A stretch of DNA of 64,000 nucleotides from Tilletia caries (Eukaryota > Basidiomycota > Exobasidiomycetes > Tilletiales > Tilletiaceae), in the NCBI GenBank assembly GCA_032718865.1, contig JALUTQ010000006.1:124001-188000 (forward strand), given 5' to 3'. The position numbers and the translations under genes are program-made. The notes below the pieces were generated by a model. That model searched no databases. It was not told where the DNA came from and saw nothing but the letters and a program-made list of their open reading frames with translations. Of the stretch, positions 28,229 to 31,200 are shown piece by piece; the first letter of the stretch is position 1, and each line of letters opens with the position of its first letter.

Positions 28229-31200
28229 ATGATGACCATGAAAAACGATAGCATCCACCTCTCCTTGAAAGATGACTTGGGATACGAACGAAGTTGGATC
28301 AAAACCGAAGACGAGACCTTGGGCTCGATGGCCGCAAGTTACGCCAAGGCTACCCGAACCAACGAAGCTGACTTCTTTCTCACGATACGAACAGTCCCCG
28401 TCAGCACCTACGAACAGATCCGACAACTACCTCTGATGAATGGGGACGTTTTGACCGTAGTCATGAACCCAGCCCGAGTTATCCCTTTCCAAAAGCCCGA
28501 GTGGATTCGCCTTCTACTCCAACTAAGCCCCGTCGGATCGGAAGGAGAAGTGTATACTCACTACGATGGACCTGCCACGAGAAACGACGAAGTACGCCTA
28601 CAAGTCTTGCTGACCGACCTCTGGCCCGGAATCCCAACCACCGCCGTACATCTACGATCCCGAAACCAGCTGACTCTCGGCAACGTCAAACGAGCCTTCG
28701 AACTCGCTCTCGAAGGAACGTACCTCCAACATTACGAAGGCGAACCAGACGACGACCTTCCACTCTCAACCCTCAACACCGGAACGATCTTGCTCCATTT
28801 CCGCCGAAGCCAGCTGATCGAGCGACCTGACGCACGATTGACCACCCACGAACTCTTCCTTGGCCCAGGAGTTGATGGGGACCGTGAGCCGATATACCTG
28901 CAAGTCGACGTCGAATGGGAACGGCGAACGTTCTCCATGTGCGTAGGATCGGAAGTCAGCGGGGATGACTTACTCACCTGGCTCCGGCTTCACCTCGACC
29001 AAGCGGGAATGCCCCTGTACGCATACCATGGGCTACGGTTACTCAGGAACGTTCCATTGAGCGGACACGGCCTTCGAAGAGGGCAGACGTACGAAATCTC
29101 GGTCGCAATGGGCATCGAACCATCCTGGATCATCCAACCTAGCACGATAATGACACAACCCAACCAGACTAACAAATCAGTTCCCCCGGTCCACCAAAGC
29201 ATCTCTCTCGACAGCGGAAACCAACGTTGCATTTTTGGGGACGTTTACATCGGCGCTGGGCACGGAATCATTCGAGGAAACATTGGACAAGTCCCTGCCC
29301 AAAGCAACTCTGTTCGACTCCAACTGCGAGGACCGGCAACCGGATTCTGGACGCTCATCCTGTCCCCCAGAAGCCCTCTGTCCACCGTAACGAACTATCT
29401 GGAATACACCTATGGTCGAACGTTTCGGTATCTGAAGAACGAAAAGGAAATCAACCCGAATTACCCCAGCCCACATCTTCAAGACGGAGACACTCTCGAC
29501 GCAATCTCGTACCAGCACTACCTCGAGGAAGATACCCCCGAACGAACGAGCTCGGACCCCAATGCGCTTAGGCTCATTCAGAAAGGAGCTCTCACCACCC
29601 TTCCGCCGCCTCCGCCTGGATACGTAAAACTGAGGCTGGAGGGTGAAAAGATCGGAACCTGGACCGCTACTATCAAGACCACGGCCTCCTTCTCTCTCAT
29701 CGCCAACCACCTGAATCAGGCGTATGGAGAAACATTCAGGTACATCATCGACGCACAGCGAATCTTGGAACGAATGACAATCTATCAAAACGATCTCGAC
29801 AACATGGACGAGATCGATGTCCTGTCCGAGCAAACTGGAGGAGGACCGTCGGTTGACGAGAACGAGTTCGATCGGTACAGCGAAACCCGAGGCGAACAAG
29901 ATCAAGTTCCGGTTAACCAGCGAGCCATGAGTCCAACCATCCTCTCCAGCGCGTCACGACCGCCCTTGAGTGCAAGCCCCCAAGAAACGTTGCCTGCGCC
30001 CGCAGGGCGAAGGTACGGGATGGTTCCGACGAAAGGAACGATCGACGCAGTCGGGAAATTCGAGGGACGAAACGCAAAAGCCTTTCTGCGAAAGTTCGAG
30101 GCTCTGGACATCTCGGACGAGGAACGTTTGAAATACCTATCCTTCTACCTCGAAGACAAGGATCCCGACATCTTCAGCCTCATCGAGGCTCACTCCTCGT
30201 ACATAGCGGGGAACTGGACGGGAGTACGGCACTTCATAATGACGGGATTCGAAGGGCCCGAGATGGACAAGTACACTGAGCACGATCTCAGCGCCTTCGT
30301 CCTCCGAAACCGAACCATCGGAACGCTCACAGAACTCAACCATTACAGCTTGGCCTTCAAGGACATCGGAGACAAGCTCGTCCAACGAGGACAAATCGGG
30401 GCGAAGCAGCTGTTGCAATACTTTGTCCGAGGACTGCCGATTGAGCTGCTCGGCACGCTCCAGAACTCATCTCTGAGGGACGAGGACGCAACTTTCCAAC
30501 AAGTCCTAGAAGAGGTTCAACGCTGTTTCCAACCCGAGACGTTCTTCAAGAAGGCGACGCTCGAGATGCAACGAGAACGAGCTCAGATCGATCACCGAGC
30601 TCCAACACACGGGCCGGCCTTAAACTTGTCTCAGCAGGGAACAACTTCCAAGAACTCGAGCTCCAACGAAGTGGTGCGTCAACTCGAGAAAATCAGCCTC
30701 AACTTTGCCCAGGCCATGGAGCGACTTGGCCCTACGGTTCTTCACCACGCAATGCCTCCCCAAGGACTCGCAGGCAACCCGAACACTGTCCCACTCCCCT
30801 TTCCAGGACCAGTCAGAACCCAGCCATATGCCGGGTACAACACGATGCTTTCACCTCAGGGAAACGTCGGAAGCGCACCGATGCCTACCTGGAACGGCCC
30901 GACCAACAACAATAACACCAGCTATCCGGCCACAGCACCCAATGCCCAACCCATCCAACGACCGCCATCCTGTGTATACTGCAACGACCCACAGCATGCT
31001 CGAGACCGATGCCCGATACTCTTCTCCCACATTCAACAAGGAATCGTGCGACTGGTCAACAACTCGGTCTGCTGGAATGACGGAACCCGGATTTCAGCTC
31101 CGACCGGCCATCTTCAAGACCCGGTAATGGAACGATTGCGTCAACAGGGACCCCCTCCGACTCCTGCCAGCAAGGTGGATGCAATGCAGGCCAACTATCT

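What the first reader, a model, noticed from the sequence alone, without database searches (positions are those of the whole stretch)
29618..29842. SUMO-like domain ending in EQTGG inside a retrotransposon Gag
Residues 465-538 of Gag follow the SUMO pattern: VKLRLEG strand, helix, FRYIIDAQRILERMT in the place of the SUMO LRFLFEGQRI segment, and MDEIDVLSEQTGG as C-terminus. Mature SUMO also ends in QTGG and is exposed by Ulp1/SENP cleavage after the diglycine. Here capsid sequence follows (GPSVDENEF...). I infer that the element may use the host SUMO protease to release mature capsid, or may attach or display SUMO. I know of Ulp1-like proteases in some transposons but not of a SUMO domain at this place in a Ty3-type Gag.
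Basis: partly seen in the sequence, partly recalled or inferred. Interest (0 to 1): 0.88.

Follow-up and report, generated by a model that had tools for sequence, protein, structure and literature searches.

The report
SUMO-like repeats in retrotransposon Gag
A jumping gene of a wheat bunt fungus carries SUMO-like protein domains in front of its capsid, the last ending in the conserved glycine pair at which cells cut SUMO, so the fungus's own enzymes may cut the capsid free.

Summary
Window 29618-29842 encodes a SUMO-like domain (U5) in the Gag of a Ty3-type LTR retrotransposon of the wheat bunt fungus Tilletia caries. It ends SEQTGG plus a third Gly; a variable linker and then the capsid follow. 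It is not alone: U4, just before it (no GG), is also SUMO-like and is predicted as a beta-grasp. A second Gag family in the same genome (about 25% identical over the capsid region) has four units in the order A-B-A-B, and both B units end in GGG. In the six Gag proteins compared (T. caries/laevis, T. controversa, T. indica, one unnamed) the unit before the capsid linker ends in GGG. In the one informative copy pair U4, U5 and capsid show purifying selection. Unit profiles match solved SUMO structures, also without the tail. The host has Ulp1- and Ulp2-like genes, and its SUMO ends EQVGG. Three capped protein searches found no relative outside Tilletia except one unnamed protein. Cleavage by a host SUMO protease is the best-supported mechanism (about 0.5), but it is not shown. 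One SUMO-like motif in a planarian Gypsy element is published; I saw no paper on tandem, GG-ended units in Gag.

The parts
25943..27188 (+). 5' LTR (TGTGGT...ACCACA); carries extra copies of a ~92-bp unit
   Evidence: 5-bp target duplication TGTGT at 25938-25942 and 36896-36900 read directly
27270..27950 (+). ORF0, 226 aa, coiled-coil-like and Arg/Ser-rich, separate frame upstream of Gag
   Evidence: pN 0.016, pS 0.079 against the C21 copy; spacer behind it pN 0.065, pS 0.066
28229..31519 (+). Gag open frame (first ATG at 28229, start inferred); frame is left near 31.2 kb in this copy
28238..28474 (+). U1, possible ubiquitin-like unit (by eye only), no GG
   Evidence: no Pfam or hhalign support
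28580..28816 (+). U2, possible ubiquitin-like unit (by eye only), no GG
   Evidence: no Pfam or hhalign support
28880..29119 (+). U3, possible ubiquitin-like unit, no GG; strand-strand-helix-strand order in a low-confidence model
   Evidence: no ubiquitin-like Pfam hit and no hhalign support
29306..29533 (+). U4, SUMO-like unit of type A, no GG
29618..29842 (+). U5, the SUMO-like unit of the finding, ends SEQTGG
29834..29845 (+). TGGG: diglycine plus third Gly; inferred cut after the second Gly
29846..30034 (+). variable linker between U5 and capsid
   Evidence: pN/pS 0.19 against 0.07 in U5
30035..30631 (+). probable capsid (CA); its C-terminal part matches PEG10, Ty1', Arc and MLV CA in a low-confidence model
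30971..31012 (+). zinc knuckle CX2CX4HX4C of nucleocapsid
   Evidence: read directly
31261..35676 (+). Pol: aspartic protease, RT, RNase H, integrase
   Evidence: no C48 (Ulp1) peptidase among its Pfam hits at E<=1
35819..36895 (+). 3' LTR

Best explanation
Shown: the Gag of this Ty3-type element carries tandem SUMO-like units before its capsid region, and the last unit ends in a conserved Gly-Gly-Gly. Inferred: the GG-ended unit is a cut site for a host SUMO/ubiquitin-type protease (Ulp1 or a relative). The host enzyme would recognise the SUMO-like surface and cut after the second Gly. That would separate the N-terminal array from linker-capsid-nucleocapsid(-Pol), much as host hydrolases free ribosomal proteins from ubiquitin fusions. 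The array would act as a soluble cap that delays or localises capsid assembly until it is removed. In the second family, with two GG ends per Gag, the array would fall apart into A-B modules.
For: U5 is SUMO-like by phmmer, by the B-unit profile and by hhalign. The B-unit profile still finds SUMO2 with the tail cut off (single-domain chains E from 2.5e-4). The unit before the capsid linker ends in GGG in 6 of 6 Gag proteins examined from two families, two of them close copies, and family 2's B1 also does in 3 of 3. The residue before GGG is T in the three family-1 proteins but H, T, K (B2) and H, R, E (B1) in family 2. In one search the invariant columns in this block are few: A270, T271, R294, R301, I319, D320, G327-G329 (A270/T271 are probably misaligned). 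Motif glycines are invariant in 9 of 9 against 24 of 43 other glycines (Fisher p 0.01). Window against C21: U5 (up to the Q before TGGG) has 21 synonymous and 5 nonsynonymous changes (pN/pS 0.07), and the codons of E, T and the third Gly changed silently. No cysteine protease among the Pfam hits of Pol. Host Ulp1- and Ulp2-like genes; the inferred last exon of host SUMO reads EQVGG followed by ARTSRTA. A viral precedent for a GG unit cut by host hydrolases is the ubiquitin insert of cytopathogenic BVDV (PMC8310069, passages seen).
Against: No cleavage data. A run of three glycines could simply be a hinge, and the third Gly is as conserved as the first two. Ulp1 prefers T or I before GG (recalled), and in family 2 that residue varies. 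B1 of family 2 lacks one of the two SUMO arginines. Of the units compared with the host SUMO by hhalign only U5 and B1 passed probability 20; B2, U4, A1, A2, T1 and U1-U3 did not, and T1 matched nothing. T. indica's first unit T1 ends EQVGGGG, but the window Gag has no GG at the matching place, U3. In family 1 the linker's first 15 residues are 7/15 identical between window and T. indica, about the average of the domain (37/75), so conservation does not drop sharply there. The model of U5's C-terminal part has pLDDT under 50. The excess of invariant glycines is modest (p 0.01) and rests on few sequences.
Confidence: 0.5

Rival explanations
1. The units are an uncut, built-in SUMO mimic (like the SUMO-like domains of Rad60/NIP45) that docks Gag on host SUMO machinery or SUMO-binding proteins, for example to steer particles to the nucleus or to chromatin. 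GGG is only a hinge.
For: Type-A units lack GG, are SUMO/ubiquitin-like and match the SUMO-like domain of NFATC2IP/NIP45 (E 6.7e-5); U4 and U5 are strongly constrained.
Against: A mimic needs no diglycine, yet GG is kept at the capsid-side unit in 6 of 6 proteins; known uncut SUMO-like domains lack GG (recalled).
Confidence: 0.3
2. The array is a structural Gag N-terminal (matrix-like) domain used for assembly or RNA handling; the SUMO kinship is ancestry only and GGG is a flexible joint.
For: The array sits where retroviral matrix would; number and sequence of units vary between families.
Against: Conservation singles out the R...R, I-D and GG positions in the last unit.
Confidence: 0.13
3. 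After cutting, the released GG-ended units are conjugated to host or Gag lysines as an element-coded SUMO.
For: An exposed GG after a SUMO fold is what E1 enzymes use (recalled); T. indica's first unit ends EQEQVGG, close to the EQVGG of the T. caries SUMO.
Against: The released piece would carry one to several further units at its N-terminus; no conjugation data; E1 and E2 contact residues not tested.
Confidence: 0.07

Closest known systems
SUMO/Smt3 (and Rad60-SLD, Pfam PF11976)
   Same: Sequence profile over the domain; the R...[DE]GxR-like and ID positions; C-terminal diglycine with more protein behind it
   Different: Built into Gag, in tandem with units that lack GG; capsid polyprotein behind the GG instead of a short tail
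Ty3/Gypsy LTR retrotransposons
   Same: LTRs with 5-bp target duplication, PR-RT-RNaseH-IN order, probable CA and a zinc knuckle
   Different: SUMO-like array before the capsid; separate upstream ORF0
Burro giant Gypsy elements of planarians (PMC6431247, passages seen)
   Same: A PF11976 SUMO-like motif in a Gypsy polyprotein
   Different: There it lies between MATH/TRAF and BCL-2 motifs; its place relative to capsid is not clear from the passages seen, which mention neither tandem units nor a diglycine
Ubiquitin insertions in cytopathogenic pestiviruses (PMC8310069, passages seen)
   Same: A GG-ended modifier inside a polyprotein used as a host processing signal
   Different: Capture of host ubiquitin in an RNA virus; here diverged, SUMO-like and kept in two element families
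Ubiquitin-ribosomal protein fusions of the host (L008)
   Same: GG-ended beta-grasp unit fused in frame before a cargo, freed by host hydrolases (recalled)
   Different: Cargo is a capsid; several units; SUMO-like

Membership tests
SUMO-like (Rad60-SLD/SUMO) domain | Sequence profile match over the domain | tested here: met
   Pfam cut-off passed in the C21 copy, P0004 and P0007, not by the window copy or P0003; of ten GG-ended units five match Rad60-SLD at E<=1
SUMO-like (Rad60-SLD/SUMO) domain | Beta-grasp fold | tested here: inconclusive
SUMO (modifier) | C-terminal diglycine held in relatives | tested here: met
   not held at the T1/U3 place
SUMO (modifier) | Free-standing small protein | tested here: not met
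   embedded in the Gag frame
SUMO (modifier) | Matured by Ulp1/SENP and conjugated to lysine | not testable with these tools
   bench test needed
Ty3/Gypsy LTR retrotransposon | LTRs with target duplication | tested here: met
   TGTGT on both sides
Ty3/Gypsy LTR retrotransposon | Order PR-RT-RNaseH-integrase | tested here: met
   integrase core itself only E 0.07
Ty3/Gypsy LTR retrotransposon | Capsid fold | tested here: inconclusive
Host-cleaved ubiquitin-type fusion proteins | Cleavage after GG by host enzyme | not testable with these tools
   host Ulp1- and Ulp2-like genes present

The most novel reading that the evidence does not exclude
A lineage of Ty3 elements builds its Gag as a poly-SUMO fusion and leaves one step of Gag maturation to the host's SUMO protease, tying capsid release to the host's SUMO cycle and place of cutting (for Ulp1 the nuclear pore), in addition to its own aspartic protease.
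Probability: 0.4. Interest if true: 0.9.

Novelty: new variant of a known kind. Interest (0 to 1): 0.75.

Why it matters
Ty3/retroviral Gag is generally taken to be matured by the element's own protease (recalled). A SUMO-like array ending in a conserved diglycine in front of capsid would make maturation depend on a host modifier protease. That would give a directly testable link between retrotransposition and the SUMO pathway; in yeast, Ulp1 held at the nuclear pore is already reported to limit Ty1 transcription (PMC8585004, passages seen). It would also be a naturally evolved version of the laboratory SUMO-fusion trick.

Tried and rejected
Spread: the protein database was searched three times; Tilletia proteins and one unnamed close relative (P0007) came back. 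In some searches only the roughly 8000 candidates sharing most words were scored, and only proteins of 0.55-1.75 times the query's length count, so distant or long relatives may be missed. Own-genome searches score only the best candidates, so copy numbers are lower bounds.

U1-U3 as ubiquitin-like units: no ubiquitin-like Pfam hit and no hhalign match, so not claimed. A1 alone matched DUF7941 (E 5.5e-4) and DUF7767 (0.019), both below cut-off, and no ubiquitin-like family. In the tail-less B profile a phage 'J tail tip' chain (9oik_C, 1.4e-4) ranks above the single-domain SUMO chains (also at 2.5e-6); why was not followed up. In the A profile polyubiquitin chains rank second to fourth, so type A is SUMO/ubiquitin-like rather than SUMO alone.

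N-myristoylation of a new N-terminal Gly: rejected, the following Pro or Asp does not fit the motif (recalled). Element-coded Ulp1-like protease: none in Pol by Pfam; other frames were not searched. First structure job: mean pLDDT 37.5 over 795 residues. Foldseek 'pdb' was not accepted, so searches are second looks at Foldseek's ranked chains. In one search residues 1-74 (U4) fill the list, so U5's fold was barely tested. MAFFT misplaces the N-terminal half of U5 against family 2; the A-T 'invariants' there are not trusted. The ten units of A7 were chosen because they end in GG, so '10 of 10' would be circular and is not used. The global alignment of U5 with host SUMO has large gaps and a shifted start; only its score against shuffles is used.

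Full report
What is there. The window lies in a 38.1-Mb assembly. Its contig lengths 2,689,501 and 1,798,756 equal the largest contig and the N50 published for Tilletia caries TC1_MSG (PMC10684912, passages seen), so the organism is T. caries, cause of common bunt of wheat. The element runs from 25943 to 36895, with LTRs 25943-27188 and 35819-36895 that start TGTGGT and end ACCACA, flanked on both sides by TGTGT. Pol has aspartic protease, RT, RNase H and integrase zinc domain in Ty3/Gypsy order. I take Gag to start at the ATG at 28229: the stretch before it behaves as non-coding (pN 0.065, pS 0.066 against the C21 copy), and a separate ORF0 lies upstream.

The reported domain. Residues encoded by 29618-29842 match SUMO1 along their length (E from 0.016), and a tandem SUMO2 chain over the C-terminal half. 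Chains listed at E below 0.4 are SUMO or SUMO fusions. Against the host's own SUMO, read from inferred exons in L017, hhalign gives probability 94.8 over 37 columns, with 0 of 50 column shuffles as good. A global alignment scores above all of 1000 shuffles with and without the six last residues (two residues of the host sequence at an exon junction are assumed, and the alignment has large gaps).

A second family has the same plan. One locus, C23:671898-672767 (L046, L047), encodes a Gag-protease frame of 1386 codons, about 25% identical to T. indica's P0004 over residues 372-653, linker and capsid. Before its capsid region lie four units, A1-B1-A2-B2. In a comparison of all pairs among eleven unit and host profiles, seven pairs passed probability 20; repeated with shuffles they are A1-A2 94.6, B1-B2 99.4, U5-U4 93.2, U5-B2 86.2, U4-A2 75.6, U5-host SUMO 94.8 and B1-host SUMO 55.9, each with 0 of 50 shuffles as good. 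Pairs that did not pass include B2-host, U4-host, A1-host and A2-host, and every pair with T1, U1, U2 or U3. The profile A7, ten units chosen because they end in GG, finds SUMO1/2/3 at E from about 2e-7, and with the tail removed single-domain SUMO2 from 2.5e-4, below a phage tail chain at 1.4e-4. The A-unit profile A9, without GG, finds SUMO2/3 at about 2e-6, polyubiquitin chains, and the SUMO-like domain of NFATC2IP at 6.7e-5. As a control, the capsid profile finds no SUMO.

The diglycine. Across the six proteins P0002-P0007 (P0002 and P0003 are close copies) the unit before the capsid linker ends in GGG in 6 of 6: SEQTGGG (window, T. controversa), GEMTGGG (T. indica), GMHGGG, GMTGGG, GMKGGG (family 2). 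B1 ends EEQ[H/R/E]GGG in 3 of 3. In the gap-free columns examined the motif glycines are invariant in 9 of 9, against 24 of 43 other glycines (p 0.01), a modest excess on few sequences. Against this: T. indica's first unit ends EQEQVGGGG, but the window Gag has no GG at the matching place, so not every GG end is kept.

Selection. Of the three other copies only C21 is diverged enough. Against it, U5 (without TGGG) has 21 synonymous and 5 nonsynonymous changes (pN/pS 0.07), U4 0.04, U3 0.05, U1 0.07, U2 0.17, capsid 0.08, the short stretch between U4 and U5 0.03, TGGG plus linker 0.19, the stretch between U3 and U4 0.24 and the stretch behind capsid 0.33; codons of E, T and the third Gly changed silently. 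Silent divergence itself is uneven, 0.43-0.54 from U4 to the linker and 0.07-0.24 elsewhere, which suggests that the copies are mosaics. C1 and C7 differ from the window by too few changes to judge.

Mechanism. A SUMO-like domain whose diglycine is kept, with further protein behind it, is what SUMO proteases cut. The host has a Ulp1-like gene (L028) and a Ulp2-like gene (L030/L039) with the catalytic segments I recall for these enzymes (8 of 14 C48 matches read), and its own SUMO precursor reads EQVGG followed by ARTSRTA. No cysteine protease was among the Pfam hits of Pol. I therefore favour host cleavage after GG, with the array as a removable cap on capsid (0.5). An uncut SUMO mimic with a glycine hinge is the main rival (0.3). 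Shown: domains, array, GG conservation, selection in one copy pair, host genes. Inferred: cutting, cap function, any link to assembly or nuclear entry.

Novelty. Ten literature searches in an open-licence library, several with more papers than were listed (20 of 64, 10 of 60, 12 of 14, 15 of 18,741), gave one near case: a PF11976 motif between MATH/TRAF and BCL-2 motifs in planarian Burro Gypsy elements (PMC6431247, passages seen). A fungal survey lists Rad60-SLD among domains of host-TE fusion genes, without details in the passages seen (PMC10799480). Term searches of two Tilletia genome papers find Gypsy elements but neither SUMO nor ubiquitin (PMC10684912, PMC9172201); those of a beta-grasp review find no transposon or retro- term (PMC1949818), and those of a Ty3/Gypsy gag-pol paper neither SUMO nor ubiquitin (PMC2577118). 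I saw tandem SUMO-like units with conserved GG before a capsid in none of these; most subscription journals are not held.

Noticed in passing
27270-27950: Upstream ORF0 (226 aa, coiled-coil-like and RS-rich) looks under purifying selection against the C21 copy (13 synonymous, 8 nonsynonymous changes); its function is unknown.
   Followed up: partly
29311-30030: Between window and C21 copies silent divergence is 0.43-0.54 here but 0.07-0.24 in the rest of Gag: the copies look like mosaics, by recombination or conversion, with the break around the SUMO-like units.
   Followed up: no
26563-26856 and 36452-36593: The 5' LTR holds extra copies of a ~92-bp unit that the 3' LTR lacks, so the LTRs differ in array length although otherwise 97.5-99% identical.
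   Followed up: no
L047 (G000:C23:670000-675500): In the second family Gag and protease share one frame of 1386 codons that ends just before the next Pol frame, with a single stop between.
   Followed up: no
G000:C21:61456-78853 (L014, L018, L020, L023): A stretch with one ubiquitin gene and several diverged ubiquitin-like frames, one with a stop inside.
   Followed up: no
L029, L031, L033, L037: C48-type peptidase frames beyond Ulp1 and Ulp2 that resemble each other around the catalytic Cys; they may be mobile or domesticated.
   Followed up: no
P0004 residues 15-88: T. indica Gag carries a first unit ending EQEQVGGGG, like the T. caries SUMO end EQVGG; the window Gag lacks GG at the matching place.
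   Followed up: partly
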